Shown here piece after piece: positions 3,434 to 20,029 of a DNA stretch of 38,711 nucleotides. Position 1 is the first letter of the stretch. Every line of letters starts with the position of its first letter. The notes beneath the pieces were generated by a model. The model ran no database searches. It was given only the letters and a program-made list of their open reading frames with translations, and was not told where the DNA came from. The stretch lies in contig JACQHR010000004.1 of NCBI GenBank assembly GCA_016198905.1, positions 67,485 to 106,195 on the forward strand, in the 5' to 3' direction. This DNA is from Candidatus Omnitrophota bacterium. GTDB taxonomy: Bacteria; Omnitrophota; Gorgyraeia; Aquiviventales; Aquiviventaceae. The position numbers and the translations under genes were made by a program.

Positions 3434-3595
3434 ATGAATCGCAAGCAAGACCTCTCGCTCGTCATCGGCATCGCGATTCCCCTCCTCATGATCCTCGTGG
3501 TCGCAGCCGGCTATGAAGCGATCTTGGCGTGCCTGGCGATCCTCCGATGTCGATACCCAGCACCGGATGCCCTTCAGCGGGCCCAACGACCATGA
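3434..3595 (+). CDS. Small single-pass membrane protein coupled to the Crp-like regulator
   Basis: A 53-codon frame starts MNRKQDLSLVIG and continues with a hydrophobic stretch at about residues 8-26, then a second weaker hydrophobic patch and a basic tail. Its TGA (3593-3595) overlaps the ATG of the crp-like gene (3592) as ATGA, a classic coupling arrangement, and it lies directly behind a good extended -10. No Shine-Dalgarno sequence is clear. I do not recognise the function. The N-terminus resembles other short anchored proteins that continue into a larger domain, so this could be a shortened relic. Its existence rests on the promoter and the coupling. Confidence 0.45.
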   Translation: MNRKQDLSLVIGIAIPLLMILVVAAGYEAILACLAILRCRYPAPDALQRAQRP

Positions 3596-4254
3596 CCCCC
3601 CAAGTGCGTAGCGGTGCGCTGGCGTGGTTGGGTACGCAGACCCTGCTGAGGGTGTTGCCCGCAGCGGCGTTGAAACGCCTCGGTAGTGCGATCAGCCAGG
3701 TGCGCTACGCCAAGGGCGAGACGATCTACAATGAGCTGGAACATCCCCGGCAGCTGTGGATCCTGAAGGAAGGGCGCGTGCGATTACTGCGTCATAGCTC
3801 GGCGGGGCGCGTGTTTGCGTTTCCAATCGCGACGCGTGGAAGCGTCTTTTGCATCGCCGGCCTCATGAACCAATGTCCGTACCCGTGTCGCGCGGTGGCG
3901 GATACGGATACCGTGCTCTTCAAGATCACCGCGTCGGCTTTCCACCAGCTCCTCAAATGCTATCCGGCGTTTGGATGCGAAGCGCTCAAGGTGGTCTGCC
4001 AGGAGTGTTGCCGGGCGCATGCGTTGTGCTCGTCCAGCCAGGAGCGCGTGGAGCAACGCCTCCTGGGAGCACTCGCGCAGTTGTTCGATGAGTTCGGACC
4101 GATGATCCCGTTGGGCCGTCAGCAGGTGGCGGAGCTGGTGGGGGTTTCCCGTGAGACGGCGAACCGGATTCTTTTGAAACTCCAAGCGCAGGGTGTCGTG
4201 AAGCTGGCCTTCCAGCGACTGGTTATCCGGAATCCTGCCAAGTTGCGATCGTAG
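3592..4254 (+). CDS. Crp/Fnr-family transcriptional regulator, cysteine-rich
   Basis: This is a 220-residue regulator with an N-terminal cyclic-nucleotide-binding-like barrel (about 20-125), a dimerisation helix (about 128-160) and a winged helix-turn-helix (about 170-215). The recognition helix VSRETANRIL keeps the Arg-Glu...Arg pattern that E. coli CRP uses to read TGTGA, so a TGTGA-N6-TCACA target is expected; a perfect one lies at 6369-6384. Nine cysteines are present (87, 95, 99, 123, 129, 136, 139, 140, 146), five of them in the dimerisation helix; the N-terminal cysteine cluster of FNR is absent. A cofactor or thiol sensor is therefore possible. The ATG at 3592 is chosen because of the ATGA overlap; an in-frame ATG at 3529 is less likely. 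Confidence 0.9.
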   Translation: MTPQVRSGALAWLGTQTLLRVLPAAALKRLGSAISQVRYAKGETIYNELEHPRQLWILKEGRVRLLRHSSAGRVFAFPIATRGSVFCIAGLMNQCPYPCRAVADTDTVLFKITASAFHQLLKCYPAFGCEALKVVCQECCRAHALCSSSQERVEQRLLGALAQLFDEFGPMIPLGRQQVAELVGVSRETANRILLKLQAQGVVKLAFQRLVIRNPAKLRS

Positions 4255-4806: not shown

Positions 4807-4810
4807 CGCA

Positions 4811-5626
4811 TTACTTCCGATGACACGCCAGGCACAAGGCGCTTCCCGTCATCTCCATGACGAGCAGCGCGGGACGCCGGCTATATGGACTGTGACAGGA
4901 CAAGCACCCGACACGGCCGTTGAACAACGGGATGCTGCCAGGCAGCGCCTCCGCAGGCGTATACGCGCTGGCCGCAGCGCCCCGTGGATAGTCGACGCCA
5001 ACCGGATGGCTCGGTCCGATCTGGCCATGCTGGAACGTTCCGGCCCGCACGTCCATAGCGCCACGTCGCGAAATCGTCCCATCATGGCAGCTCAGGCATT
5101 CCACAGAAAATGAATCGAGCGGTGCGCCGTCAGCCGCTTGCGTCAGCCTGCCGGAGGCATGCGCGTAAGAGACGCTGAACTGATGCCGCCATCCTGCGCC
5201 GAGCAATTCCTCTCGATGGCAGGTCGCGCAAAACGCCTCGCCGCGGACGTGCCCGCGCAACAGACCCGTCAGCTCCTCTGCGCCCACGGCGTGTTCCTCT
5301 TTATGCACATCATGGCACGTCACACAGGTCAGCCGACCGTCCGCATCCAGATACCGTTGCAGCGGGATGGGGAGGTGGGGTTTCACCCCCACAGGGTGCG
5401 AGGCGTCGGGATTCATACGATGGCAGCGTGAGCACAATTGATCGACCGGCTCCTTTAGGACAACCTCCTCAAACGGTGCGCCAAGATGCGGCATGCCCAC
5501 GTGACAGTCCTGGCAGCGGCCTTCGAACTGATGCCGTCTTGCCGTCCCGCCCAACAAACGACCTGCCACGATGATCCCCAACGCTGCCGCCAGAGCGCCT
5601 GCCCACGTCCAGCGGCCGACGCGCAT
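4811..5626 (-). CDS. Heptaheme c-type cytochrome, membrane anchored
   Basis: This 271-residue protein has seven CXXCH motifs (CQDCH, CSRCH, CVTCH, CATCH, CLSCH, CLSCH, CLACH), all followed by spacing typical of the cytochrome c3 / paired-CXXCH families. An N-terminal hydrophobic stretch (about 8-26) is either an uncleaved anchor or a signal peptide, so the heme domain is exported. The ATG overlaps the TAA of the upstream HAMP gene (TAATG). It probably shuttles electrons in the periplasm. Being sandwiched between two HAMP proteins is unusual and suggests that electron flow is linked to a membrane signal or to membrane docking. Confidence 0.9.
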   Translation of the reverse strand: MRVGRWTWAGALAAALGIIVAGRLLGGTARRHQFEGRCQDCHVGMPHLGAPFEEVVLKEPVDQLCSRCHRMNPDASHPVGVKPHLPIPLQRYLDADGRLTCVTCHDVHKEEHAVGAEELTGLLRGHVRGEAFCATCHREELLGAGWRHQFSVSYAHASGRLTQAADGAPLDSFSVECLSCHDGTISRRGAMDVRAGTFQHGQIGPSHPVGVDYPRGAAASAYTPAEALPGSIPLFNGRVGCLSCHSPYSRRPALLVMEMTGSALCLACHRK

Positions 5627-6183
5627 TAACGATCGTATCCGGAGGCATCGCCCTGAAAAAGCTGATGCATCTGCTCGTAAACGTCGTGTAGATCGCGCAG
5701 AGGCTGCCGGAGTCCTGACGGATCATCGGGATGCCGAGCACTCCAGTGCTCGCAGTCCTGGAGTAAGCGTTCTGCCCGCTCCAGAGAGGTGTCCCAGGCG
5801 GCTCGTCGTCGGCTCCGGGCGGCGATGAGGTGCTCGAACGCGTCGGCCAAGCGATGCAGTTGATCGGTCTTGCGAAACCGCACTTCCTCAATGGGCTGAT
5901 TCGTGGCGAGTTCCTGCAGGTACCGGCGTACGCGCACGAGCGGGCCCGACACCGCATGCGTCCAGCACAGCGAGAGGAACAATCCCATTCCCCCCACCAC
6001 CGTCACGGAGATCATCCCCGCCGCGAAGAGGGTCGTGGGCAGCCGTTCCTGCAGGGCGCTCAGCGCCGCGAGGTCCTTCGCATACCCCAGGCCCAGGCGC
6101 TGATGAAGCATCGCCAGGAGCCCTGCGCCAAAAAGGATAAACCCGACCCCCGCGAAGCCTGCGACTCGCGCAGCCAACGTCAT
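5626..6183 (-). CDS. Two-TM membrane protein with HAMP domain and no output domain
   Basis: This 185-residue protein starts at the ATG at 6183, which has GTGGAG about 7 nt upstream; an in-frame ATG at 6231 lacks a ribosome site. Membrane segments lie at about 3-28 and 50-75, separated by a short external loop. Then comes a recognisable HAMP domain (GPLVRVRRYLQEL...RKTDQLHRLADAFEHL) and a helical tail of about 60 residues. Sensor kinases and chemoreceptors have this layout before an output domain, but here the protein stops. It leads the minus-strand unit with the heptaheme cytochrome and a second HAMP-like protein. Confidence 0.75.
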   Translation of the reverse strand: MTLAARVAGFAGVGFILFGAGLLAMLHQRLGLGYAKDLAALSALQERLPTTLFAAGMISVTVVGGMGLFLSLCWTHAVSGPLVRVRRYLQELATNQPIEEVRFRKTDQLHRLADAFEHLIAARSRRRAAWDTSLERAERLLQDCEHWSARHPDDPSGLRQPLRDLHDVYEQMHQLFQGDASGYDR

Positions 6184-6368
6184 GCGGTATCTCCACGTGA
6201 TGCAGGTTGGCGGAAGATTGGTTGGGTTCATGAATGGCTTAGATGCAAATATCTCATGATATCATGGGAACTCGTCCAGCACACGTCTAGTTTCTGGTGG
6301 GGAGAAGCCTGCTGAAGAGTGCGCGTGGCCTCAAGGGAAGGTAAGGCGAGGGGTCTTTTTGCCGCAGA

Positions 6369-6384
6369 TGTGATCGCGATCACA
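6369..6384. promoter_or_regulatory. Crp/Fnr-type operator, perfect palindrome
   Basis: TGTGATCGCGATCACA is a perfect 16-bp palindrome and matches the CRP consensus TGTGA-N6-TCACA. The Crp-like protein encoded at 3592 carries a matching recognition helix (SRETANRIL). Its centre (6376.5) is 41.5 bp from a start site predicted from the -10 at 6406-6411. Confidence 0.75.
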
Positions 6385-6493: not shown

Positions 6494-6506
6494 AAAGATT
6501 TACATT
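6479..6506 (+). promoter_or_regulatory. Possible hemA-proximal promoter overlapping the Rex operator
   Basis: TAGACG (6479-6484) and TACATT (6501-6506) are four-of-six matches to the -35 and -10 boxes with a 16-bp spacer. The start would be near 6513, inside the Rex-type operator, so a bound repressor would block it. The -35 overlaps the stem of the hairpin at 6457-6493. Confidence 0.3.
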
Positions 6507-6523
6507 GTGAAAAAGTTCACAAT
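6504..6523. promoter_or_regulatory. Rex-type redox operator
   Basis: ATTGTGAAAAAGTTCACAAT is a perfect inverted repeat with a 4-nt spacer and fits the Rex consensus TTGTGAA-N4-TTCACAA at every defined base. Rex is an NADH-sensing repressor of respiratory genes; in Streptomyces it controls a hem operon. It lies 39 bp before the hemA ATG. No rex gene is in the window. Confidence 0.7.
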
Positions 6524-6562: not shown

Positions 6563-7657
6563 ATGTCGCTTATCGTCGTCGGAGTGAATCATCGCACCGC
6601 CGCACTCGCCTTGCGCGATCGGCTGGCTGTTTCCTCGTGCGAGCTTCCCGCTACTCTCTTTGAGCTGCGGACGGCCGCAGACTTGGAGGAAGTGGTCATC
6701 CTGTCCACGTGTAATCGGTTAGAGTGCTACGGGGTGACCCAGGATCCCACCACGGCCTACCGGCACGTGGCAGCATTTCTCGCACGCCGAGCGGGTCTTG
6801 CCGTTGAACGCGTTCACGCGCGACTCTATGGTTTCACTGACGTCGATGCGGTGCAGCACGGCTTTCGTGTCGCTGCCGGGTTGGATTCCATGATCCTGGG
6901 CGAATCAGAGATTGCCGCGCAGGTCAAACAAGCCTACCACGTGGCGCATGCGGCGGGTGCCACCGGAGTGGTGCTCAATCGGCTCTTCCAGAAAGCCATC
7001 CACAGCGCGAAGGTGGTGCGTTTCCGGACGCGCATCGCCGAGGGCCAGGCGTCGATCGGCTCGGTAGTCGTCGCGCTTACCAGAAACCTGTTCGCGAATC
7101 GTTTGCAAGATCGTCAGGTGTTGCTCTGGGGTGCCGGTAAAGCCGCGGAGACGACCGCGCGCCATCTCATCAAGCAGGGCGTTCAAAAGCTGTGGATTGT
7201 CAATCGCACCGCCGGCAAAGCTCAGGAGTTGGCCGCGCTGTGTCAGGGTGGCTGGCTCTCGTGGGAGCAAGCACTGCGACATCTGGCCCACGTCGACGTC
7301 GCGATCGTCTGCACCCAGGCCCCGCACTACGTGATTGATGAAGCGGATCTTGCAGCCGTCTGGCCGCAGCGGGGCGGTCGGCCCCTCCTCATCGTGGACC
7401 TGGCGGTGCCGCGCAACGTTGATCCTATCCTGCGGCAGCACCCCGGGGTGCGGCTGTACAACATCGATGATCTACAGTCCATTGCCCAAATAGCGGTGGC
7501 GCAGCGTCAGGGTGAACTGATTTCCTGCGAAACACTCATTCACGAGCAAGTGGGGCAGTTTGTCAGATGGTGGAGCGGCGCATCACACAAGGAGCAGATG
7601 GCATGTCGCATCGCGGGTCAGGGTACAGAGGCTTTGTCGTTGTTGGTTTCAGCGTAG
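6563..7657 (+). CDS. hemA: Glutamyl-tRNA reductase, short C-terminus
   Basis: HemA reduces glutamyl-tRNA(Glu) to glutamate-1-semialdehyde, the first step of C5-pathway heme synthesis. The catalytic Cys50 sits in STCNRLE at the usual place; GLDSMILGESEIAAQVKQAY and the NADPH-domain LLWGAGKAAETTARHL are intact. At 364 residues it is roughly 50-60 residues shorter than most homologues: the C-terminal dimerisation helices are largely missing and the end overlaps the following cytochrome gene by 55 bp in another frame. It leads the cytochrome cluster, behind Rex-type and Crp-type sites, so its role here is probably to raise heme supply when the cytochromes are made. A second, full-length hemA elsewhere is possible. 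Confidence 0.92.
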   Translation: MSLIVVGVNHRTAALALRDRLAVSSCELPATLFELRTAADLEEVVILSTCNRLECYGVTQDPTTAYRHVAAFLARRAGLAVERVHARLYGFTDVDAVQHGFRVAAGLDSMILGESEIAAQVKQAYHVAHAAGATGVVLNRLFQKAIHSAKVVRFRTRIAEGQASIGSVVVALTRNLFANRLQDRQVLLWGAGKAAETTARHLIKQGVQKLWIVNRTAGKAQELAALCQGGWLSWEQALRHLAHVDVAIVCTQAPHYVIDEADLAAVWPQRGGRPLLIVDLAVPRNVDPILRQHPGVRLYNIDDLQSIAQIAVAQRQGELISCETLIHEQVGQFVRWWSGASHKEQMACRIAGQGTEALSLLVSA

Positions 7658-7977
7658 TGGTGGCGTGTAGTCTGGCGCGCCCTGCCTGGGCCACATTGGG
7701 TAACTTCAAGACGCTCAAAGAAGCCTACCCTGGCAAGGACGCCAAATCGTATTCATGCAAAATCTGCCACCTCAATGCGATTGGGAAGAAGGGCGAGCTC
7801 AACGCCTATGGCTTGGCGTTGCAGAAGCTTAAAGGTGAGGGGAATGCCAAGGTGCTGACGGCAGACGACCTGCGGGCCATTGAGAAGGACGATGCGGATG
7901 GCGACGGGATGTCCAACCTTGATGAGATCAATGCGGGAACAGCCCCAGGCGATCCCGCGTCGGTTCCACAACAGTGA
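7603..7977 (+). CDS. Exported monoheme c-type cytochrome with Ca-binding-like repeat
   Basis: The ATG at 7603 has GGAG 8 nt upstream and opens a clean signal peptide ending near PAWA (about residues 1-30); the mature protein is about 95 residues. It carries one heme motif, CKICH, and near the C-terminus DADGDGMSNLDEINAGTAPGD, the acidic pattern of thrombospondin type 3 or EF-hand-like calcium loops. The start lies inside hemA in a different frame. It is likely a small periplasmic electron carrier of the conduit. The heme motif and signal peptide are seen directly; calcium binding is inferred. Confidence 0.8.
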   Translation: MSHRGSGYRGFVVVGFSVVVACSLARPAWATLGNFKTLKEAYPGKDAKSYSCKICHLNAIGKKGELNAYGLALQKLKGEGNAKVLTADDLRAIEKDDADGDGMSNLDEINAGTAPGDPASVPQQ

Positions 7978-8019
7978 CGTCGGATCCTCGAAGATCGGAA
8001 AGAGGCGCTGGAGATTCGG

Positions 8020-9123
8020 ATGAGCGGTATCGGGCGGAAGGCGGCGAGCATCGTTAGCCTGCTGGTGCTGCTGTCGGGTTGCGCGACGACAGGCCCGCAA
8101 AAGGTCGCAGAGATCTTGTGGCCGCCGCCGCCGGAGACGCCACGTATTAAGTTTGTGGGGGTGCTCCGCAACCAAGAGGACCTGCGTGCCCTTCAGGGAG
8201 GCAAGAGCGGGCGCGAATGGTTTGAGGAGGCCCTGCTGGGTCCGAAAAAGGTGACCAGCGCTCTTCTGCAGCCGATGGGGCTGGCGTTGTCGCGGGACGG
8301 CACGCGATTATATCTCACCGACTACGCCAAGCCCGACGTGTTGGTCTTTGACTTCGCCACGAAACACGTCCGATCACTTGGTGGAAACGGGGGCGGCTGC
8401 CAAAGCCCCTTAGGGGTGGCGGTCGACGCGGCCGACAACCTCTATATCGTGGATTCAACGCCCAAACGGATTCGCGTGTTCAGCCCGAGCGGAGCTGCGC
8501 TGCGTACGATTAGCCATGAAAGCCTGGAGCGACCCACAGGGATTGCGGTGGATGCCGCGCGAGACCGGATCTACGTTGCCGATTCTGCCACAGCGTCGGC
8601 AAAGCAGCATGTGATCCGGGTATTCGACCTTGCCGGAACGTATCTTTACGCGTTAGGCGGTGAGGGAAGCGCCGGGGGTCCCCTTGCGTTTCCCACCTAT
8701 CTGACGGTAGACGGGCAGGGCCAGTTGTATGTGGCGGATACCGTCAACGGGCGAGTGCAGGTGTTTGACTCCGAAGGCCGCTATGTGAAGACCGTTGGCG
8801 AGCGCGGTGACGCCTTCGGAATGTTTGACAAGCCTAAGGGCATCGCATTGGATTCGTTTGGCAACCTCTATGTCGTCGATTCCTCCTGGAGCAACGTGCA
8901 GATTTTCAACCAACAAGGAGCAGTGCTCCTCTACTTCGGTGGGCGGGGCAAAGTCCCCGGCCTCTTGTTCAACCCCACAGGGATTGCGATCAGTCAGGAC
9001 AACCGCATCTTTGTGGCTGATGCATTCAATGCGCGGATCGCGATCTATCAGCTCATCAACACCAAGGCCGAGGACAGTTTCGCATCGCTGAAGCCGTCAG
9101 CGGCCGGCACGACGAAACCGTAG
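8020..9123 (+). CDS. NHL-repeat beta-propeller lipoprotein (first of two)
   Basis: This 367-residue protein starts with a lipoprotein signal (VLLSGC, Cys at about 21). After a Pro-rich linker (WPPPPETPRIKF) come about six NHL blades, seen as repeated GLALS.DGTRLYLTD, GVAVDAADNLYIVDS and GIALDSFGNLYVVDS units. No heme motif is present. NHL propellers bind proteins or sugars and often accompany porin-cytochrome genes; the lipid anchor places it at the outer membrane. It shares linker and layout with the protein at 13350-14399, so the two are paralogues. GGAG precedes the ATG by 6 nt. Confidence 0.85.
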   Translation: MSGIGRKAASIVSLLVLLSGCATTGPQKVAEILWPPPPETPRIKFVGVLRNQEDLRALQGGKSGREWFEEALLGPKKVTSALLQPMGLALSRDGTRLYLTDYAKPDVLVFDFATKHVRSLGGNGGGCQSPLGVAVDAADNLYIVDSTPKRIRVFSPSGAALRTISHESLERPTGIAVDAARDRIYVADSATASAKQHVIRVFDLAGTYLYALGGEGSAGGPLAFPTYLTVDGQGQLYVADTVNGRVQVFDSEGRYVKTVGERGDAFGMFDKPKGIALDSFGNLYVVDSSWSNVQIFNQQGAVLLYFGGRGKVPGLLFNPTGIAISQDNRIFVADAFNARIAIYQLINTKAEDSFASLKPSAAGTTKP

Positions 9124-9159
9124 CGAATGGGACACGAGCAGACGAGGAGGTGACACAGA

Positions 9160-9828
9160 ATGAACAGGAGATGGAGGTTGCAGCTTGGAGCGCTGGCTGT
9201 CGTAGGGGCTTGGGGGCTCTTGCCGTTGGTCGCAGAGGCGGTCACCGGCAGCCACAACATGAGCAGCAAGGCGCCGGGCGGCCAGGTGTGTATCGTCTGC
9301 CATGCGCCGCATGGCGTGCCCAAGAGCCCGCTGTTGTGGAACCACGTGTTATCCGCGAACAACTACAGCTGGAGCGATTGGGTTAAGACAACCGGCGATA
9401 CGACGCTGCCGACGAATATCCAAAGCTGGTCCGGCAGCACGAAGATGTGTTTGAGTTGTCATGATGGGACCGTGGCACTCGGCGCGCTGGCCGATGGCAC
9501 CGTGTTTGACACAAGGAAGATGACCGGCCACAATCTCATCACCACCCCCTCAGGCGACCTGAAGGGCAACCACCCGGTGGCGATCCCGTACCCCTATAAC
9601 AGGGTGAAGAACACGTACAACGGCATCACGACGGGCGATCTCGCGATGCAATCCGGTTGGGTCGCGACTCCCACCAAGGTGAAGATCTACATCGATGCGG
9701 CCGGTGGGGCGAACAACCGAGGCATTGAATGCGCCTCATGCCACGATCCGCACGGCACGGCGAACCCGAACTACCTTCGCGACAGCACGTCAGGCAGTGC
9801 TCTGTGTTTGGACTGCCACACCAAGTAG
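9160..9828 (+). CDS. Exported tetraheme c-type cytochrome, paired-CXXCH family
   Basis: This 222-residue protein has a signal peptide ending near AEA (about residue 27) and four heme motifs: CIVCH, CLSCH, CASCH, CLDCH. The segment GSHNMSS...VCIVCHAPHG...LLWN...CLSCHDGTVALG is the typical paired-CXXCH layout, also found at the N-terminus of the large cytochrome at 14371. Histidines in GHNL and GNHPV are likely distal ligands. A near-perfect Shine-Dalgarno, GAGGAGGTGA, suggests strong translation. It is probably an abundant periplasmic or surface carrier. Confidence 0.92.
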   Translation: MNRRWRLQLGALAVVGAWGLLPLVAEAVTGSHNMSSKAPGGQVCIVCHAPHGVPKSPLLWNHVLSANNYSWSDWVKTTGDTTLPTNIQSWSGSTKMCLSCHDGTVALGALADGTVFDTRKMTGHNLITTPSGDLKGNHPVAIPYPYNRVKNTYNGITTGDLAMQSGWVATPTKVKIYIDAAGGANNRGIECASCHDPHGTANPNYLRDSTSGSALCLDCHTK

Positions 9829-9850
9829 TGTCGCAGTAACCTTCGCATAC

Positions 9851-9880
9851 GGCCTGGACACCGGCTTTAACGTCCAGGCC
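9851..9880 (+). terminator. Hairpin after the tetraheme cytochrome gene
   Basis: GGCCTGGAC (9851-9859) pairs perfectly with GTCCAGGCC (9872-9880) across a 12-nt loop, 23 bp after the cytochrome stop. A T-rich stretch comes only about 12 nt later. It may be a partial terminator or an RNA stabiliser that separates expression of the first four genes from the rest. Confidence 0.4.
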
Positions 9881-9914
9881 GTTGCGCGGCCTATATTTTC
9901 CAGATTAGGGTGAT

Positions 9915-10331
9915 ATGATGCCTGATCCCACAGAGCTGTGGTGCTACGAGACGCTGCGACGTTTGCGCTGGCCTCACGGCATGACCTGCCCGCGGTGCAG
10001 CGAACGGAGGGTGACGATCCACTCGAAGTCGACGCAGTCGCCTCGACGGAAATATCTCTGCTTGCAGTGCCGGAGAACCTTCACGGATTTGACCGGCACG
10101 CCGTTTGCTCGGACGAATCTGCCGCTGCGCACGTGGGCGCTCTACCTGCGTTGGATGGAGCACGGGGGCAGGACGTCCGAGCTTGCAAAGGCGCTTGGCG
10201 TGAAGTGGGATACGGCCGCCCTGCTGCAGCGACGCATCGCCATGGCGCGAAGCGGCTCGGGACTCAGCCGTCAGCTCTGCGAGGTCTTGCAAGGCCCACA
10301 CAAGGGTGAATCGTGTGGAGGTGGGACGTGA
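9915..10331 (+). CDS. IS1595-type transposase zinc-ribbon protein without catalytic domain
   Basis: This 138-residue protein corresponds to the N-terminal part of IS1595-family transposases: a zinc ribbon with CPRC (near residue 25) and CLQC (near 50), followed by RRTFTDLTGTPFARTNLPLRTWALYL and a helix-turn-helix-like segment (TSELAKALGVKWDTAALLQRRI). The DDE nuclease that should follow is absent. It is not an obvious wreck: its TGA overlaps the GTG start of the next cytochrome gene (GTGA), and a Shine-Dalgarno for that gene lies in its last codons. I infer a DNA-binding remnant adopted into the operon, possibly as a regulator. An alternative is an insertion relic that happens to be coupled. 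Confidence 0.75.
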   Translation: MMPDPTELWCYETLRRLRWPHGMTCPRCSERRVTIHSKSTQSPRRKYLCLQCRRTFTDLTGTPFARTNLPLRTWALYLRWMEHGGRTSELAKALGVKWDTAALLQRRIAMARSGSGLSRQLCEVLQGPHKGESCGGGT

Positions 10332-11002
10332 CAGTGAAGCCCCGGCGCCCAATCGTCATGATGGTCGGCTGCTTGATGGTCATGCTGCTGACGGGCTGCC
10401 AGGCCGCCACCCGACAGAAAATGTTGTCTCTTGTCTTCGATGGGGCCACACCGACGCCGCCGCCGCCGACGCGTCGCCTGCGTCGGGATTTGCTCCGCGA
10501 AATCGAGACGCTGCAGGAGCAACTGCGCCAGGCGCGGGAAGAATCGGCACTCGCTCAACAGGGACCTGCTCGTGCGGCAGAGGCACAGACGCCCGCCGCG
10601 CCGGCACGGCCCATCGAACAGGCCCGCACGTGGGACGAGGCCGCCAAACTTCTTCCATCCAGTGACGACATGCCGGATTGGGTCAAGGCCGTTTCCGACG
10701 GCGTGATCGCGCCGAAGCCCGGGCTTGATCCACAGGCGGCTCGCGAGCCGGTGCTGCCGCTGGACGTGGAGCTGGTGCCGGCGGATGATCCGACGTACGC
10801 CGTACTCTTTCGCCATGAGCCCCACACGGCGTGGCTCTCGTGTGCGAACTGTCACCCGGCAATTTTTCAGATGAAGCGTGGCGCCGACACCATCACGATG
10901 GACAAGATTACCGAAGGGAAATACTGCGGAGTGTGCCACGGCAAGGTGGCGTTCTCCGCGGATGCGTGCGCGCGATGCCACCAAGCCATGGCGACACCGT
11001 GA
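10328..11002 (+). CDS. Triheme c7-type cytochrome lipoprotein with coiled-coil stalk
   Basis: The GTG at 10328 has GGAGGT 5 nt upstream and overlaps the stop of the zinc-ribbon gene. A lipoprotein signal (MLLTGC) is followed by a Pro-rich patch, a coiled coil (about 50-80) and an Ala/Pro linker. The C-terminal 70 residues hold CANCH, CGVCH and CARCH in the pattern of the c7-type triheme domain, with FQMKRG..TITMDKITEGKYCGVCH between hemes 1 and 2. The stalk would let the heme domain reach into the periplasm from the outer membrane, next to the barrel encoded downstream. Its TGA overlaps the next ATG. Confidence 0.88.
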   Translation: MTVKPRRPIVMMVGCLMVMLLTGCQAATRQKMLSLVFDGATPTPPPPTRRLRRDLLREIETLQEQLRQAREESALAQQGPARAAEAQTPAAPARPIEQARTWDEAAKLLPSSDDMPDWVKAVSDGVIAPKPGLDPQAAREPVLPLDVELVPADDPTYAVLFRHEPHTAWLSCANCHPAIFQMKRGADTITMDKITEGKYCGVCHGKVAFSADACARCHQAMATP

Positions 11003-11322
11003 TGTCGCTCAAACGATTCGTGCTGACACTCCTGCTGGCAAGTCTGTGGGCGGGCTGTGTCGTCGCGGCGGACGGAGATGTCGTGTTCAAACGTGAGGGC
11101 CAAGAGGGAACCACCCCGCCAGCCGTGTTCCCGCATTGGATCCATCGCATCCGCTATCGTTGCTACGCCTGCCACGCGTCCCTGTTTGAGATGAAGGCGG
11201 GTGCCGTTCGTATCACGATGGACGACATCATGGCCGGCAAGTTCTGCGGGGTCTGCCATAACGGCAAGACCGCGTGGGCGGTGACCTTTGAGACCTGCGC
11301 GCGATGCCACAAGGGACAATGA
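11002..11322 (+). CDS. Small exported triheme c7-type cytochrome
   Basis: This 106-residue protein starts at an ATG overlapping the previous stop (TGATG). It has a signal peptide ending near VVAA (about residue 23) and then a single triheme domain with CYACH, CGVCH and CARCH. The domain is a close paralogue of the C-terminal domain of the preceding lipoprotein (FEMKAGAVRITMDDIMAGKFCGVCH). It is likely a soluble periplasmic electron carrier feeding the conduit. Its TGA overlaps the ATG of the barrel gene, so three consecutive genes here are translationally coupled. Confidence 0.9.
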   Translation: MSLKRFVLTLLLASLWAGCVVAADGDVVFKREGQEGTTPPAVFPHWIHRIRYRCYACHASLFEMKAGAVRITMDDIMAGKFCGVCHNGKTAWAVTFETCARCHKGQ

Positions 11323-13343
11323 GACAGCAATGGCTTCGTCTGCTGTGGGCGGCAAGCTGGCTCGCGGCGCTAGCACTTGCGCCTGCTGAAACCGTGCACG
11401 CTCAGCTCATCGGAGCCGGAGAGCGGACCGCGGCCATTGAGATCGCGGTCGTCATGGCTCGCCAGAAGATCACCGCCACGAACGCGGAACGCACCCGCAC
11501 CAACAGCGCGCTCATCGAAGAGCGGCTCAAACTTGCGAGCACGAACATGTACGTGTTCGACCCTCGGCTGTTCAAGCTCTCGCTGGCCGGAGATTTCGGG
11601 CTATCCCAGGAGTGGCTGACAAGCCCGGGTAGTCAGGTTTCGCGCGAGGGGACTTTGCGGGGCTACGAAGCGGATCTAGCCGTGCTGGGGGAGCAGGCGA
11701 CGTCGTTGAACCTCTTTGCAAGCCGTGACCAATCGCTGCTGCTGCGGGAGCTTGCCGGCCGCAGTGAAGCCATCAACGAGGATCGGGGGATGACGCTCTT
11801 TGCCAGGCGCTTGCCTCTACCTTCGACGCTGACTTGGCGGCAGGAATTGCAGGAGGAAGAGTCCCGCACCGGGGACGTGTTTTCACGTCGCGACGATCGG
11901 CGCAACATCTTCACCTATGAAGGATCGCGCGGATGGGTGGATCGCGAGCTGAGCCTTCGGTACGAGTTCGTCGATCTCACCGCCGAGGTCCTGCCAAACC
12001 TCAGCTACAACAGTCACGAGGGCAGCGTGCTCTTCAGCTCCGATTTCGGGCCCGAGCTGAACCGGCACTGGGATTCCCAAGCGCGCTACTTCACCCGCGC
12101 CGGCCAGACTGATTTGACGACTCTCACCGTCGATGAGGGGCTGCGGTTCGAACACTCCGAGCAGTTTCAGACCGAGGGTCGGTACTTCCTGCTGTCGACC
12201 GAGACCGTGGGAGGCACCAGCACGACCCACACCGCGACCCTGCGGGCGCACCGGCAGTTCTATGACAACCTCCGCACGACACTCGGTGGGGATGCGAGCT
12301 TTCTGACGCTTCCCGGCGGCGATGAAGATATCTTCCGCAGCCAGCTCGATGCCGCGTACACCAAACGCCTGCCCGGGGCGGGCACGCTGAACGCCGGACT
12401 GGGCGGACGGATTGAATATCAGGACAACCGCTTTGAGGGGACCGAGAGCTTTGTGCCCCAGGAGACGCACACCTTTGCGACCCCCAACGCCGTGCCGGTG
12501 ACGTTGAGCAACCCGTTCATCGACACCTCCTCGCTCGTCGTGACCAAGGTGACGCTCGGCCCGCTGCCCCCCGGGTGTTTGACGCCGTCAGGCCCACCGG
12601 TGCCGCTGGTCCTCGGACGGGACTACACACTCTTGACGGTTGGCGATGTCATTCAAGTCGTGCCGGTCGCTTGCGTGGGAGCGACGCCGGGCATCAACCC
12701 GGGAGACACGATTGCGGTTGATTATCGTTTTAAAGTTTCGCCCGCGCTTGCGTTCAACACGGAGGGCTGGCGGGCAGATCTCAGCGTGGACTACCGGTGG
12801 GTGAGACCGTACGTGGCGTACCAGCAAACGGCGCAGCACCTGCGTTCCGGACGTGATGAGGGGTTGCTGGACGACCAACAATCGGATGCGGTGGGGATTG
12901 AGTTCCGCAAGGATGGCCAACGCGTCCATGCGAATCTCGTCGGTGAGCTCAGCCGGTTTACCTCCACCCGTCTCAACTATGACAGACTGCGCAGCACCCA
13001 ATTTCTCAGTTACTCGCCCCTACCTGAGGTGACCCTCAATGTCAGCGGGGAAGAGGGGCGGCTCAACTTCGACACTCCCGACCACCAGATCCACACCGTC
13101 ATGGGGCAGGTCAGCCTGACCTATGCCGCCTCAGCCAATCTTCTGGCGGAGGCCTCGGTCGGGACGCGCTGGCTCAACGATACCGTGCTGCCGGACGAGC
13201 GCCATGCGCAAGCCACCGCCAGACTGCGTTGGATACTCCGCGCGCTTGAGATCAGCCCGCGGTTCGACTGGTTCAACCGACGGCGAGGGGATACGCTGTC
13301 GGACGAGTACCGGCTGTTCTTGCACGTCATCCGTCGCTTCTAG
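11319..13343 (+). CDS. Large outer-membrane beta-barrel, putative porin of the cytochrome conduit
   Basis: This 674-residue protein has a signal peptide ending near VHA (about residue 30) and then long runs of alternating polar and hydrophobic strands separated by charged loops. It ends in Phe after LFLHVIRRF, a typical barrel-insertion signal. No heme motif is present. Around residues 395-475 a non-barrel stretch (VVTKVTLGPLPPG...GRDYTLLTVGDVIQVV) may form a loop or plug. Porins of this size next to multiheme cytochromes form trans-outer-membrane electron conduits in metal-respiring bacteria; that role is inferred from context, since barrel sequences diverge too far for recognition by eye. 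ATG at 11319 overlaps the previous TGA. Confidence 0.8.
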   Translation: MRQQWLRLLWAASWLAALALAPAETVHAQLIGAGERTAAIEIAVVMARQKITATNAERTRTNSALIEERLKLASTNMYVFDPRLFKLSLAGDFGLSQEWLTSPGSQVSREGTLRGYEADLAVLGEQATSLNLFASRDQSLLLRELAGRSEAINEDRGMTLFARRLPLPSTLTWRQELQEEESRTGDVFSRRDDRRNIFTYEGSRGWVDRELSLRYEFVDLTAEVLPNLSYNSHEGSVLFSSDFGPELNRHWDSQARYFTRAGQTDLTTLTVDEGLRFEHSEQFQTEGRYFLLSTETVGGTSTTHTATLRAHRQFYDNLRTTLGGDASFLTLPGGDEDIFRSQLDAAYTKRLPGAGTLNAGLGGRIEYQDNRFEGTESFVPQETHTFATPNAVPVTLSNPFIDTSSLVVTKVTLGPLPPGCLTPSGPPVPLVLGRDYTLLTVGDVIQVVPVACVGATPGINPGDTIAVDYRFKVSPALAFNTEGWRADLSVDYRWVRPYVAYQQTAQHLRSGRDEGLLDDQQSDAVGIEFRKDGQRVHANLVGELSRFTSTRLNYDRLRSTQFLSYSPLPEVTLNVSGEEGRLNFDTPDHQIHTVMGQVSLTYAASANLLAEASVGTRWLNDTVLPDERHAQATARLRWILRALEISPRFDWFNRRRGDTLSDEYRLFLHVIRRF

Positions 13344-13349
13344 CGTCAC

Positions 13350-14399
13350 ATGACCACAATGAAGAAAGTGCGCATCTTGAGTGTGTTGGTGATGGCTGTT
13401 GGAACCGTGTCCTGCGGGTTGACGGCGACCCAACACGTGCGCTCGCGCGAGACGTCGGTTGCGTCCTTGGTCTGGCCCGAGCCGCCGCAGCCTGCCCGCA
13501 TTCGCTTCAAACAATCCATCTCGCGTCCTGAAGATGCGGGGATCCGGCCGACGCTCTGGCAGCGCATGGTGGAGCGTGTGGCAGGCAAAGATCAAGAGGA
13601 GAGATTCATTCGCCCGACGGGGATCGCGGCAACCAATGAAGTCCTCTATGTGGCTGATCCGGGGGCGCAACAGGTGCGAGTGTTTGATCTGAAGGCGGGA
13701 CGGCGTCGACGGATCCGTCAGGCGGGACGGCAGCGCTTCGTCTCTCCCGTCGCTGTGGCCCTCGGCGCATCCGGAGGGGTCTACGTGGCGGACTCGTATC
13801 TTGCCAAGGTGTTTGCGTTTGACGCTCAGGGGCGCCTGATCGCCACGATAGCCCGCGAGGAATTCCGCCGACCATCCGGTGTCGCCTATGACGCCCTTCG
13901 AGATCGCCTCTATGTCGCCGACAGCGCAGCCCATCGGATCTGGGTATTCACCGGTGCCGGCAATCCCATAGGGAGCATCGGCCACCGAGGGACCGAGCCG
14001 GGCGCGTTCAATTTTCCGACGCATCTTGCGGTCGGTACGGATGGCCGCCTCTACGTGACGGATGCGCTGGGCTTTCGCGTGCAGATCTTCAACGCGGATG
14101 GGAGTGTGGCGGGGCAGTTCGGTCGGCACGGCGATGCCTCGGGAGATGTGGCGCGCCCCAAAGGGGTGGCTGTCGATCGCGACGGACACATCTACCTGGT
14201 GGACGCGCTGTTTGATGCGGTGCAGATCTTCGACCGGTCAGGTCGGTTGCTCTTGAGCTTCGGCCGATCGGGCACGGCCGAGGGAGAGTTTTGGCTGCCG
14301 AACGGCGTGTGTATTGACGCGCAGGATCGCATCTACGTCGCCGATTCGTACAACCGGAGGATCCAAATCTTTGAATATCTTCGGGAAGATAACCCTTAG
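13350..14399 (+). CDS. NHL-repeat beta-propeller lipoprotein (second of two)
   Basis: This protein of about 349 residues starts 6 bp after the barrel gene. A second ATG at 13359 (MKKVRIL) fits a signal peptide better. The signal ends at GTVSCG, a passable lipobox. NHL blades follow (GIAATNEVLYVADPGAQQ, GVAYDALRDRLYVADSAA, GVCIDAQDRIYVADSYNR). The linker WPEPPQPARIRF mirrors WPPPPETPRIKF in the paralogue at 8020. One NHL protein lies on each side of the triheme-barrel block, which suggests a paired scaffold at the outer membrane. The last 29 bp overlap the next gene. Confidence 0.85.
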   Translation: MTTMKKVRILSVLVMAVGTVSCGLTATQHVRSRETSVASLVWPEPPQPARIRFKQSISRPEDAGIRPTLWQRMVERVAGKDQEERFIRPTGIAATNEVLYVADPGAQQVRVFDLKAGRRRRIRQAGRQRFVSPVAVALGASGGVYVADSYLAKVFAFDAQGRLIATIAREEFRRPSGVAYDALRDRLYVADSAAHRIWVFTGAGNPIGSIGHRGTEPGAFNFPTHLAVGTDGRLYVTDALGFRVQIFNADGSVAGQFGRHGDASGDVARPKGVAVDRDGHIYLVDALFDAVQIFDRSGRLLLSFGRSGTAEGEFWLPNGVCIDAQDRIYVADSYNRRIQIFEYLREDNP

Positions 14400-16074
14400 C
14401 TTTTGGGGCGCTTGGCTGCTGGCCTGCGCGCTCGGGGTGTGCCCGGCGGCCGCGAGGGAAGGGATCGCCGGCACAAAGCACAACCTGTCCGCCTCCGGGC
14501 CTGGGAGCGTGAAAGCACCCGGCGCGTCGGATGACGTGTGCATCTTTTGTCATACGCCGCACAACGCCAACCCTTCACGGGCGTTGTGGAACCAGGCGTT
14601 GCCGGGTGCTGCGTACACGCTCTACACGAGTGTGACGCTCAAAGCGACGTTGCAGCAGCCGACCGGCAGCTCGCGGCTGTGTCTGTCCTGCCACGACGGA
14701 ACACTGGCCCTGGGCAATCTGCGCATGCCTCCGAGCGCCGGAGCCTCGACGTTCGGTCCGGTGACGGGCCGAGCCTCGTTAGGCACCGATCTTTCCGACG
14801 ACCATCCCATTTCATTTGTCTATGACACGGCCCTGGCCCTGAGGCGTGGCGAACTGGCCGATCCGGCCACACTCTCGACCGCCACACCCTTGGATGCCTC
14901 CCAGCAACTCCAATGCACGACCTGCCATGATCCGCACGATGCGAGGTACCGTCAGTTCCTCCGGATGGACGATCGCTTCGGGGCGTTGTGCACGTCGTGC
15001 CATCACCTGAAGAACTGGGCGGATTCCGCGCATGCGACCTCACGGGCTGCCTGGTCCCGCAGCGGGACGAATCCCTGGCCCACGGCCCCCGCCGCCACCG
15101 TCGCCGAGAACGCCTGCGAGAACTGCCACCGTCCGCATGCGGCACCGCGTCCAGCCGCCTTACTCGCGAGCGCCCAGGAGCGCGAGGTCTGTCTGGTGTG
15201 TCACAACGGCTCCGTGGCCGTGAAGAACGTGGAGCCTGAGCTGGTGAAGTTCAGCGCCCATCCGGTCGGCTCCAGCGACTGGGTCCATACGCCGCAGGAA
15301 AATCCATCGACAATGAGCCGGCATGTCTCCTGCGTGGATTGCCACAATCCGCATCAGGTCCTCGCCACAGCCGCCAATCCTCCGATGGTCTCCGGGAATC
15401 TCCAGGGGGTGTCAGGTGTAGATGTGTCGGGTGCGGCCATCCCTGAAGCGCGGTATGCGTACGAAGTTTGTTTGAAGTGCCACGGGATTTCCGATCAGAC
15501 GACACCGGGGATCGTCCGCCAGGACAACACGCGCAACATCCGCCTGGAGATCAATTCCAACAACGCCTCCTATCATCCGGTGACTGCGGTAGGCCGGAAC
15601 CCCACCATCCAAGGGCTTGAGCCGGGCCTGAGCGCGTCCAGCCTCATTGGCTGCACCGATTGTCACAACAACGATGACTGGACCAACGGGTCCGTCCGAC
15701 CGAACGGACCTCACGGATCACGGATTGGGCCGATTCTTACGCACGACTATCAACAGGGCGATCCGGTGACCGAGCCGTTGCAAAGCTACACGCTGTGCTA
15801 TACCTGCCATACGCGCGGCACGCTGATGGCGAGCGGCCGCTTTCCACACCAGAACCATGTTGAGAACGAACAGACCTCGTGCGCCGTCTGCCATGATGCG
15901 CATGGATCGCGCCAGAACCCGGCCCTGATCAACTTCATGCTCCGCGACGCCGCGGGGCAAGTCGTGGTCAGCCCGAATCGCAGCGGGCTGATCCAGTTCA
16001 CGTCAACCGGTGCCGGGCACGGGCAGTGTTCGTTGACATGCCACGGCAACGACCATGTCCGTCAACGGTACTGA
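14371..16074 (+). CDS. Exported 11- or 12-heme c-type cytochrome
   Basis: This is about 567 residues from a TTG start at 14371. GGAGG lies 10 nt upstream, and the product then begins with a good signal peptide (NIFGKITLSFWGAWLL...PAAA); an ATG at 14314 would put a charged, unlikely leader in front. Eleven CXXCH motifs follow (CIFCH, CLSCH, CTTCH, CTSCH, CENCH, CLVCH, CVDCH, CLKCH, CTDCH, CYTCH, CAVCH). The C-terminus has CSLTCH, a CX3CH motif that may bind a twelfth heme. The N-terminal third resembles the tetraheme protein at 9160. It is the likely main electron-transfer wire, periplasmic or on the cell surface. Confidence 0.92.
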   Translation: MNIFGKITLSFWGAWLLACALGVCPAAAREGIAGTKHNLSASGPGSVKAPGASDDVCIFCHTPHNANPSRALWNQALPGAAYTLYTSVTLKATLQQPTGSSRLCLSCHDGTLALGNLRMPPSAGASTFGPVTGRASLGTDLSDDHPISFVYDTALALRRGELADPATLSTATPLDASQQLQCTTCHDPHDARYRQFLRMDDRFGALCTSCHHLKNWADSAHATSRAAWSRSGTNPWPTAPAATVAENACENCHRPHAAPRPAALLASAQEREVCLVCHNGSVAVKNVEPELVKFSAHPVGSSDWVHTPQENPSTMSRHVSCVDCHNPHQVLATAANPPMVSGNLQGVSGVDVSGAAIPEARYAYEVCLKCHGISDQTTPGIVRQDNTRNIRLEINSNNASYHPVTAVGRNPTIQGLEPGLSASSLIGCTDCHNNDDWTNGSVRPNGPHGSRIGPILTHDYQQGDPVTEPLQSYTLCYTCHTRGTLMASGRFPHQNHVENEQTSCAVCHDAHGSRQNPALINFMLRDAAGQVVVSPNRSGLIQFTSTGAGHGQCSLTCHGNDHVRQRY

Positions 16075-16083
16075 TGTGATACT

Positions 16084-17871
16084 ATGTTTCCTCTGATGAG
16101 ACGCTGGATACGATTGCTGGGATCGTTGACCCTCGCGGTGCCGCTGCTGATCGCCATCGCCGCCGTCTTGGCTTGGGGGACCCTCTACGAAATGCGCTTC
16201 GGCACGGCGGCGGTGCAGCGCTTCATTTATCACGGCTGGTGGTTTCAAGCGCTCCTGGCGTTTCTGGCCGTCAACCTGGCCATCGCGGCGGCATCGCGCT
16301 ACCCATGGAAGCGCCATCAGCTGCCGTTTCTCCTGGCCCACCTGGGGATCATCCTCATCCTCGTCGGCGGCATCATCGGCGGCCGCTTCGGCGTCGAAGG
16401 CCAGCTCGTGATTCCGGAGGGGCAGGCCGAGCGCACCCTGGAGCTGCCGCAAAACGTCCTCGTCGTGCACCAACCCAACCCAGACCTTCAGCACGTCATT
16501 CCGATGCAGTTTGAGAGTCGGGCCTGGGTCCATGAACCCAACCTGACGATCCCCGTCTCGCTGGGCGGTCGGATGATCTCGCTGACCGTGGATCGGTATT
16601 ATCCTGATGCGGTGGCCGACGAAGAGATCACCGATGACGGGGCAAAGGAGTATCCCGCCGTTCAGGTTCGGCTGGCGCATGAGGAGCACCAGGATGTCAT
16701 CTGGTTCATGAGCCGGGATCCGGAGCGCTTCGGGGTCGGGTGGGGCGAGGCGCACGTCTTGTTCCTTGAGCCGCAGACTCCGGAACAATTCAAGCAGCTC
16801 CTCGGCAGCCCTGCTCAGGACGCCCATCCGCGAGGGGTCATTGCTCTGACGCTGCCCGGGATGACGCATCCGCGAGAGGTTCCGGTTCCCGACGAGCCCA
16901 ACCATGTCGTCGAGGTGAGCGGCACTCCCTATCGGATCACCTTCAAGGACTACTTTCCTGACTTCGCCATGACGGAGGAAGGGCCGAGGAGCCAATCGAC
17001 CCAGCCGAATAACCCCGCCGTCTCCTTCGTCCTCGCCGGGCCGGAGGGAGCGGATGCGTATATGCTCTTTGCGCTGCACCCGGACTTCCAGACGCTCCAC
17101 GGCTTCGCGCACCAAATCCCCGCGCACATCAGCTACACCCACCCCACGGCCGCCTCACTGCCGCCCAACTGCATCGGGTTGATCCGTGATCCATCGGGAA
17201 CGCTCGTGGCCGTGTTGACCGGCAGCGGAACCGAACGGTCCGTCGTGAATCCGGTGCGCATCGGAACTTCCTATACGCACCCGTCGTTGGGCTACCAGGT
17301 TGAAGTGGCCGCGTACTATCCACGGGCGAGGGTGACCCAGCGGATTACGAACCGGACAGATGAGATCCGTGCCGAGGCGATCCACGTCGTGGCGCGGGAA
17401 GGCGAGCAGTCGGCGGCGACGTGGCTGACTCTGCGCGGCAGCGCCCACCTGACGCTGGGAGCGGAGCCGATCCATCTCGAGTACCGGCCGGCGCAGCGTG
17501 AGCTTCCGATGACGATCAAGCTGCTCGACTTTCGCAAGATCGACTATCCAGGGACCGACATGGCCGCCGGATTTGAAAGCGATGTTGAGCTGACCGATCC
17601 GCAGCGGGGCATCATGGTGATGCGCAAGATCAGCATGAACAACCCGCTGCGCTACCGCGGGTTTAGTTTCTATCAGTCCAGCTACATCCCAGGCCGGACG
17701 GAGATGACCGTGCTCTCCGTCCGCAACGATCCCGGCACGCCGCTGGTCTATGCCGGCTTTCTCATTATCATCGCCGGCGTGGTGAGCCTGTTTGTGCTTC
17801 GGGCTCCTGCGACCGCCGCGGCAGCCCGACGCAAGGCCGGACACCCCCATCCAAGGAGCCGCTCAACATGA
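16084..17871 (+). CDS. resB: ResB-family (System II) cytochrome c maturation protein
   Basis: This is about 595 residues. N-terminal membrane segments lie at about 13-31, 50-70 and 82-100 (LAHLGIILILVGGIIGG), then a long periplasmic domain (about 105-550) and a final membrane helix (about 562-582, GFLIIIAGVVSLFVL) before a basic tail. This is the ResB/Ccs1 layout. ResB works with CcsA/ResC to deliver heme and keep apocytochromes reduced; no ccsA is in the window. Placement directly after a cluster with at least 22 heme sites suggests a dedicated maturation supply. The ATG at 16096 is an alternative start. The stop overlaps a 13-codon frame. Confidence 0.88.
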   Translation: MFPLMRRWIRLLGSLTLAVPLLIAIAAVLAWGTLYEMRFGTAAVQRFIYHGWWFQALLAFLAVNLAIAAASRYPWKRHQLPFLLAHLGIILILVGGIIGGRFGVEGQLVIPEGQAERTLELPQNVLVVHQPNPDLQHVIPMQFESRAWVHEPNLTIPVSLGGRMISLTVDRYYPDAVADEEITDDGAKEYPAVQVRLAHEEHQDVIWFMSRDPERFGVGWGEAHVLFLEPQTPEQFKQLLGSPAQDAHPRGVIALTLPGMTHPREVPVPDEPNHVVEVSGTPYRITFKDYFPDFAMTEEGPRSQSTQPNNPAVSFVLAGPEGADAYMLFALHPDFQTLHGFAHQIPAHISYTHPTAASLPPNCIGLIRDPSGTLVAVLTGSGTERSVVNPVRIGTSYTHPSLGYQVEVAAYYPRARVTQRITNRTDEIRAEAIHVVAREGEQSAATWLTLRGSAHLTLGAEPIHLEYRPAQRELPMTIKLLDFRKIDYPGTDMAAGFESDVELTDPQRGIMVMRKISMNNPLRYRGFSFYQSSYIPGRTEMTVLSVRNDPGTPLVYAGFLIIIAGVVSLFVLRAPATAAAARRKAGHPHPRSRST

Positions 17872-19486: not shown

Positions 19487-19532
19487 TGCATCCTGTCCTC
19501 GGAAATCCACACGTCAACCCAGGAGGCAGTCG

Positions 19533-19922: not shown

Positions 19923-20029
19923 CGGTGCGGCGAGTACGGGAAAATGAACACCGAAGGTGTTTAGCATCGGATGGCCTCGGCTGGGTTATGAAGCGGAGGT
20001 GTCCTTGTGGGTGCCAGACTGAGTGAGCA

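What the first reader, a model, noticed from the sequence alone, without database searches (positions are those of the whole stretch)
6563..17871. Compact electron-conduit cluster led by hemA and closed by resB
Heme synthesis entry enzyme, mono-, tetra-, two tri- and one 11/12-heme cytochromes, a 674-residue barrel, two NHL lipoproteins and a System II maturation protein lie on one strand with several overlapping start-stop pairs. Porin-cytochrome clusters are known from metal reducers, but one bundled with its own heme supply and maturation factor looks like a self-contained module for moving electrons across the outer membrane.
Basis: partly seen in the sequence, partly recalled or inferred. 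Interest (0 to 1): 0.7.

Follow-up and report, generated by a model that had tools for sequence, protein, structure and literature searches.

The report
Nanowire cytochrome locus with heme genes
An uncultured Omnitrophota bacterium carries a horizontally acquired gene set for moving electrons out of the cell, whose key protein is related to the one that forms Geobacter's OmcE cytochrome nanowires, and its own lineage's spare heme-making and heme-attaching genes have been placed at the two ends of it.

Summary
The genes are there as described, on one strand, tightly spaced or overlapping. The finding is really an OmcE-type cytochrome-filament ("nanowire") locus. The tetraheme protein (9160-9828) matches the solved OmcE filament (7tfs, E=2e-14) and keeps all four CxxCH motifs plus four further invariant histidines. 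The core order NHL1-OmcE-c7-c7-barrel-NHL2-11-heme recurs in Gammaproteobacteria and Myxococcota, mostly without hemA or ResB. The 11-heme tree nests this Omnitrophota core inside Gammaproteobacteria. hemA, monoheme and ResB are instead host-type: in this family a second hemA lineage, followed by a monoheme gene in 9 of 9 loci, is separate from the housekeeping hemA. All five Omnitrophota OmcE loci seen have heme-synthesis and/or System II genes nearby, as has a verrucomicrobial locus. Geobacter's omcE locus also carries ResB/CcsB, and dedicated ResB/ResC pairs were proposed in 2009. "Self-contained" is too strong: ResB has no adjacent CcsA, and one heme enzyme is not a pathway. The locus extends further: three divergent genes (4267-6231) belong to it, and two perfect CRP-type sites lie in the shared promoter region. 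New variant of a known kind. Filament formation and electron export remain inferred.

The parts
3529..4254 (+). CRP/FNR-family regulator with CRP-type recognition helix (SRETANR)
   Evidence: PF00027 + HTH_Crp; helix read; CRP-family regulators also lie upstream of hemA in L048, L204, L207, L152
4267..4806 (-). two-TM membrane protein, HAMP/sensor-like remnant (IMP179)
   Evidence: 48% identical gene in the G005 cluster, 24% in L151; weak sensor-kinase similarity
4811..5626 (-). N-terminally membrane-anchored heptaheme cytochrome (candidate inner-membrane electron entry)
   Evidence: 7 CxxCH; 63% in the G005 cluster, 47% in L151; weaker in L077, L090
5626..6231 (-). two-TM protein with HAMP-like stretch, no family match (HAMP201)
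   Evidence: 53% in the G005 cluster, 27% in L151; no Pfam/NCBIfam hit
6369..6384 (.). perfect CRP-type palindrome TGTGATCGCGATCACA in the divergent promoter region
   Evidence: only two in the window, 0.02 expected
6506..6521 (.). perfect CRP-type palindrome TGTGAAAAAGTTCACA, 57 nt before hemA
6563..7657 (+). hemA, glutamyl-tRNA reductase paralogue of the cytochrome-associated type A; no C-terminal dimerisation domain
   Evidence: TIGR01035; type A clade 100/100; no PF00745 match; STCNR motif kept
7603..7977 (+). monoheme cytochrome, always follows type A hemA
   Evidence: 1 CxxCH; neighbour of hemA in 9 of 9 type A loci
8020..9123 (+). NHL beta-propeller lipoprotein 1
   Evidence: PF01436; lipobox LSGC; conserved in other phyla
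9160..9828 (+). OmcE-type tetraheme cytochrome (candidate filament subunit)
   Evidence: 7tfs E=2e-14, 9yuq 1e-8; 4 CxxCH + 4 invariant His
9915..10331 (+). 138-aa IS1595-like zinc ribbon + HTH protein without transposase domain
   Evidence: PF12760; 55% identical and in the same place in G005
10313..11002 (+). c7-type triheme lipoprotein
   Evidence: TIGR04257; lipobox LTGC
11002..11322 (+). c7-type triheme periplasmic cytochrome
   Evidence: TIGR04257
11304..13343 (+). large outer-membrane beta-barrel
   Evidence: AlphaFold2 pLDDT 88.9, about 28-30 strands; C-terminal aromatic residue shared with most homologues
13350..14399 (+). NHL beta-propeller lipoprotein 2
   Evidence: PF01436; 51-60% to several gammaproteobacterial orthologues
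14371..16074 (+). 11-heme cytochrome with an N-terminal OmcE-like domain (start codon uncertain)
   Evidence: 7tfs E=7e-28 over residues 37-231; nested in gammaproteobacterial clade
16084..17871 (+). ResB/Ccs1-like System II protein, no adjacent CcsA
   Evidence: PF05140; host-family type; only CcsA hit at C27

Best explanation
The locus encodes an OmcE-type extracellular cytochrome filament and the envelope apparatus that feeds and exports it. Inferred path: quinol electrons enter the divergent membrane-anchored heptaheme cytochrome, pass through periplasmic c7 triheme cytochromes, cross the outer membrane in the wide barrel with its triheme lipoprotein and NHL lipoproteins, and leave through the 11-heme surface cytochrome to filaments of the tetraheme protein. 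The core came from outside the phylum (gammaproteobacterial type). In the Omnitrophota host it was set between host-type hemA-monoheme and resB copies, which raise heme precursor supply and apocytochrome heme attachment when the locus is switched on by a CRP-family regulator acting on the divergent promoter. Shown: gene content, homology, conservation, trees, site sequences. Inferred: filament formation, electron direction, regulation, heme-supply role.
For: OmcE match with all heme ligands conserved. Core order conserved in several phyla. Confident wide barrel. Divergent trio travels with the cluster. MHC11 tree places window and G005 within Gammaproteobacteria, while hemA and ResB are host-family type. 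hemA type A forms a clade separate from the housekeeping type B, which sits in the hem operon, and four relatives carry both. Heme-synthesis/System II genes at all five Omnitrophota OmcE loci seen and at a verrucomicrobial one. ResB/CcsB in the Geobacter omcE locus (PMC2700814). Two perfect CRP sites, 0.02 expected.
Against: ResB lacks an adjacent CcsA. No PPIase gene, unlike related Geobacter/SEEP-SRB operons. AlphaFold2 of the tetraheme protein was uninformative (pLDDT 48). Barrel has no sequence or specific fold match to MtrB-type porins. The CRP sites are not conserved before type A hemA in relatives. The ResB tree is weakly supported (92/93). MAG is 80% complete.
Confidence: 0.7

Rival explanations
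1. An ordinary porin-cytochrome conduit: the tetraheme protein is a soluble or surface-bound carrier, no filament is made, and OmcE similarity reflects only common descent.
For: NHL, c7, barrel and MHC11 suffice for a conduit; the N-terminal domain of MHC11 is itself OmcE-like, so the fold also occurs in non-filament proteins.
Against: Full-length match to OmcE with the four extra histidines invariant in 27 homologues; a separate tetraheme gene is kept at many of these loci.
Confidence: 0.3
2. hemA and resB are neighbours by genome history only: the core was inserted into, or recombined with, an existing hemA...resB cytochrome locus and the flanks have no functional tie to it.
For: In relatives hemA-monoheme...ResB-CcsA frames a Rieske/cytochrome b/multiheme cluster, so the frame could predate the core; ResB has no CcsA beside it.
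Against: Own genome keeps a separate hemA and ResB-CcsA locus on C27, so these are extra copies; gaps are tight; unrelated Omnitrophota and a verrucomicrobial OmcE locus have their own heme/System II genes.
Confidence: 0.25
3. The extra HemA makes tetrapyrrole for something else (siroheme, cobalamin) or is a degenerate copy.
For: All these HemA lack the dimerisation domain; only the first enzyme is present.
Against: The domain is missing in all copies tested across the lineage, in and out of this kind of locus; motif STCNR intact; next gene is a cytochrome in 9 of 9 loci.
Confidence: 0.1
4. Binning or assembly error joining a gammaproteobacterial core to Omnitrophota flanks.
For: Core is nested in Gammaproteobacteria.
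Against: Same core in an independent Omnitrophota MAG of another genus (G005/L066) with 53% identical barrel and shared zinc-ribbon gene; host-type genes on both sides; GC even across the locus.
Confidence: 0.03

Closest known systems
Geobacter omcE locus (ppcA-resB-resC-GSU0615-0616-GSU0617-omcE), OmcE filament PDB 7tfs
   Same: OmcE-type tetraheme, NHL protein, multiheme cytochromes and a System II gene together (PMC2700814, PMC7894505)
   Different: The Geobacter-type loci seen here have ResB (plus CcsB in L168) and no barrel homologue or hemA at the omcE gene; the window has barrel, two c7 proteins, two NHL, hemA, orphan ResB and a divergent heptaheme module
osc (OmcS companion) operon GSU2493-2500 and the SEEP-SRB1 beta-propeller/PPIase/16- and 26-heme operon
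   Same: beta-propeller protein(s) with several cytochromes; osc is proposed to fold and secrete cytochrome filaments (PMC13194489, PMC12977616, PMC5539420)
   Different: No PPIase and no 16- or 26-heme cytochrome in the window; filament candidate is OmcE-, not OmcS-like
Gammaproteobacterial/myxococcal NHL-OmcE-c7-c7-barrel-NHL-MHC clusters (L065, L067-L069, L071)
   Same: Same gene order and about 51-60% identical NHL2/MHC11
   Different: No hemA or ResB next to the core, no zinc-ribbon gene, no divergent heptaheme trio detected in the fetched stretch (L069 has ResB/CcsA about 8-9 kb away; L067 has a hemN about 8 kb away)
MtrCAB / Pcc porin-cytochrome conduits
   Same: wide barrel beside periplasmic and surface multiheme cytochromes
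   Different: no sequence or specific structural match of the barrel; periplasmic partner is c7 triheme, not decaheme MtrA

Membership tests
OmcE-type filament cytochromes | Full-length homology to OmcE | tested here: met
   7tfs E=2.1e-14 over residues 11-222
OmcE-type filament cytochromes | Four CxxCH and four distal His for bis-His ligation | tested here: met
   H32, H51, H138, H198 plus four CxxCH invariant in 27 homologues
OmcE-type filament cytochromes | Polymerises, with one heme ligated across subunits | not testable with these tools
   needs cryo-EM; the cross-subunit ligand is described in PMC12954529
MtrCAB/Pcc conduit | Large outer-membrane barrel wide enough for a heme protein | tested here: met
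   AF2 pLDDT 88.9, about 28-30 strands; MtrB-type barrels have 26 (own knowledge); width is inferred from strand number, not measured
MtrCAB/Pcc conduit | Barrel homologous to MtrB/OmbB | tested here: not met
   no Pfam or PDB sequence match; the best Foldseek matches listed are generic barrels, TM below 0.45
MtrCAB/Pcc conduit | Periplasmic and surface multiheme cytochromes encoded beside the barrel | tested here: met
   c7 triheme pair and 11-heme protein; cell location inferred
osc / beta-propeller-PPIase-cytochrome operon | PPIase gene in the block | tested here: not met
   no rotamase match among the cluster genes and the flanking genes scanned
osc / beta-propeller-PPIase-cytochrome operon | Beta-propeller proteins with multiheme cytochromes | tested here: met
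   two NHL lipoproteins
System II cytochrome c maturation (ResB-CcsA) | ResB/Ccs1 protein | tested here: met
   PF05140 4e-28
System II cytochrome c maturation (ResB-CcsA) | CcsA/ResC partner adjacent or fused | tested here: not met
   next genes are Dph-like and hydrolase; only CcsA hit at G000:C27
Glutamyl-tRNA reductase HemA | Catalytic and NADPH domains, STCNR motif | tested here: met
   PF05201, PF01488, TIGR01035 above cut-off
Glutamyl-tRNA reductase HemA | C-terminal dimerisation domain (PF00745) | tested here: not met
   absent, as in five other Omnitrophota/Verrucomicrobia copies: a lineage trait

The most novel reading that the evidence does not exclude
Omnitrophota (and some Verrucomicrobia) keep a glutamyl-tRNA reductase paralogue dedicated to cytochrome production and have recruited heme-synthesis and System II genes to OmcE-filament loci more than once, so that heme supply, heme attachment and nanowire are one co-regulated, transferable unit in otherwise small genomes.
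Probability: 0.4. Interest if true: 0.7.

Novelty: new variant of a known kind. Interest (0 to 1): 0.57.

Why it matters
It puts OmcE-type nanowire genes in a phylum of small, uncultured bacteria (no report found in the papers searched here). It shows the core moving between phyla. It also gives a testable case for an open point raised for Geobacter in 2009: whether heme-attachment genes, and here a separate heme-synthesis gene, are dedicated to the cytochromes encoded beside them.

Tried and rejected
(1) Barrel as genome-collection query found nothing; the NHL alignment was the hook that worked. (2) Barrel as MtrB family: rejected as a membership claim. (3) hemA/ResB unique to this locus: rejected, since the same frame surrounds a bc-type cluster in relatives and System II genes occur at 12 of 56 such loci versus 0 of 24 other NHL loci (p=0.009 by locus, about 0.02 by base pairs by my own estimate; the control loci are shorter and come from other taxa, so a weak control). 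(4) Zinc-ribbon gene as a transposon remnant: unlikely, since it is intact and in the same place in another genus. (5) AF2 of the tetraheme protein: low confidence, not used. (6) CRP sites as a conserved hemA operator: not found before type A hemA in relatives. (7) viral contigs and plasmid searches: nothing. (8) Key papers on OmcE (2022), ubiquitous cytochrome nanowires (2023) and the osc operon (2025) are not held; statements on osc come from citing papers.

Full report
WHAT IS THERE. The window lies in a 1.41-Mb, 80%-complete metagenome-assembled genome (G000:C7). Neighbouring gaps from hemA to resB run from -61 to +86 nt, with several overlaps. Two things were missed inside and beside the span: a 138-aa IS1595-like zinc-ribbon/HTH gene without a transposase domain (9915-10331), 55% identical and in the same place in G005; and a divergent minus-strand trio (4267-6231: two two-TM proteins and a membrane-anchored heptaheme cytochrome). 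In G005 the trio follows ResB on the same strand and in L151 it lies next to the cluster on the other strand, so it belongs to the system.

THE TETRAHEME PROTEIN IS OmcE-LIKE. Residues 11-222 of 222 match the chain of the Geobacter OmcE filament (7tfs, 2.1e-14) and 9yuq (1e-8). In 27 homologues the four CxxCH motifs and exactly four more histidines (H32, H51, H138, H198) are invariant, the number needed for bis-His ligation of four hemes. In OmcE one of those ligands comes from the next subunit (PMC12954529). The N-terminal domain of the 11-heme protein is also OmcE-like (7e-28). AlphaFold2 on the tetraheme protein was uninformative, so polymerisation is inferred from homology only.

THE CORE IS WIDESPREAD. 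The order NHL1, OmcE, c7, c7, barrel, NHL2, MHC11 recurs in Acidiferrobacterales (L065), other Gammaproteobacteria (L067, L068, L071) and Myxococcota (L069), with rearranged or reduced forms in Comamonadaceae (L112), Geobacter/Geotalea (L082, L086), Planctomycetota, Nitrospira, WOR-3 and others. Barrel homologues in the same slot end in an aromatic residue in most cases. The window barrel is predicted at pLDDT 88.9 with about 28-30 long strands and one inserted small domain; by comparison with 26-stranded MtrB (own knowledge) it is wide enough for a small heme protein. It has no sequence or specific structural match to known porins.

HISTORY. In the 11-heme tree the window and L066 sit together (100/97) inside a gammaproteobacterial/myxococcal clade (100/99, 96/90), away from two other Omnitrophota (L151, L152). 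So the core most likely crossed phyla. hemA and ResB tell a different story. ResB is 69% identical to G020's and groups with it (92/93, not starred). Family members have two hemA kinds. Type B sits in a sirC/hemX/hemA/hemC/cobA-hemD type operon (gene names there by inspection of the translations). Type A is followed by a monoheme cytochrome gene in 9 of 9 loci, and where the contig continues by Rieske, cytochrome b and multiheme genes, and in the longest ones ResB and CcsA. The two kinds form clades (A 100/100; B of the family 99/98), and G001, G018, G020 and G022 carry both. The window hemA is a type A copy; the same genome has another type A copy and a ResB-CcsA pair on C27. The locus therefore looks like an acquired core framed by host-type, cytochrome-dedicated copies.

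IS THE BUNDLING MEANINGFUL? In a sample of 384 Omnitrophota genomes only G000, G210, G291 and G303 have the OmcE protein, and G005 is a fifth. All five have heme or System II genes beside it: window hemA and ResB; G210 hemL, ResB, CcsB; G291 hemN, hemE, protoporphyrinogen oxidase, ResB; G303 hemA; G005 ResB (its other side is cut by the contig end). A verrucomicrobial locus has hemA next to OmcE (L084). Elsewhere System II genes lie in 12 of 56 cluster loci against 0 of 24 control NHL loci (weak control). The Geobacter-type omcE locus L168 reads triheme-ResB-CcsB-10-heme-8-heme-NHL-OmcE, matching GSU0612-0618, and a 2009 genome paper already proposed that such ResB/ResC pairs serve the neighbouring cytochromes (PMC2700814). 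The maturation half of the idea is thus known; the hemA half appears new in the literature I could search.

REGULATION. The 331-bp divergent intergenic region holds two perfect TGTGA-N6-TCACA palindromes (6369-6384, 6506-6521), the only ones in the window, 0.02 expected. A CRP/FNR-family gene with a CRP-type SRETANR helix lies at 3529-4254. This predicts joint control of both arms; the sites are not conserved in relatives.

LIMITS. ResB is an orphan; CcsA would have to come from C27. One heme enzyme does not make a supply, though GluTR is the committed step (own knowledge). The type A and B HemA tested all lack the dimerisation domain. The PPIase of osc-type operons (PMC5539420, PMC13194489) is absent. 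Nothing here shows expression, filaments or direction of electron flow.

Noticed in passing
window 6563-7657; L015, L048, L050, L084, L152: HemA proteins of Omnitrophota and a Verrucomicrobium all lack the C-terminal GlutR_dimer domain (PF00745) and end at about 340-365 residues; how such a GluTR dimerises is unclear.
   Followed up: partly
window 9915-10331; L014 about 426-779: A stand-alone IS1595-type zinc-ribbon + HTH protein conserved inside the cluster in two genera; possibly a domesticated regulator.
   Followed up: partly
G000:C27 (L015, L016): Same genome holds a second cytochrome region: type A hemA, monoheme and 8-heme proteins, molybdopterin oxidoreductase-like gene, Rieske/cytochrome b, several multiheme proteins, ResB-CcsA.
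   Followed up: partly
L014:6535-9693: G005 cluster has an extra 1052-aa multiheme protein with PKD and carboxypeptidase-regulatory domains, a possible surface adhesin-cytochrome.
   Followed up: no
L071:3091 and 3291, L074:4748, L078:5591, L079:5855 and 14280: Perfect FNR boxes (TTGAT-N4-ATCAA) within about 800 nt upstream of OmcE or NHL1 genes in proteobacterial versions of the cluster, suggesting anaerobic control.
   Followed up: no
window 11304-13343, residues about 390-480: Barrel family carries a conserved inserted small beta domain with a PPGCLTPSGPPVPL...GRDYTL motif; function unknown.
   Followed up: no
window 19501-21157: GC dip (0.54) over an ORF of 375 aa (20030-21157) with no Pfam match, next to a DoxX gene.
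   Followed up: no
window 35845-38618: Two adjacent diguanylate cyclase (GGDEF) genes.
   Followed up: no
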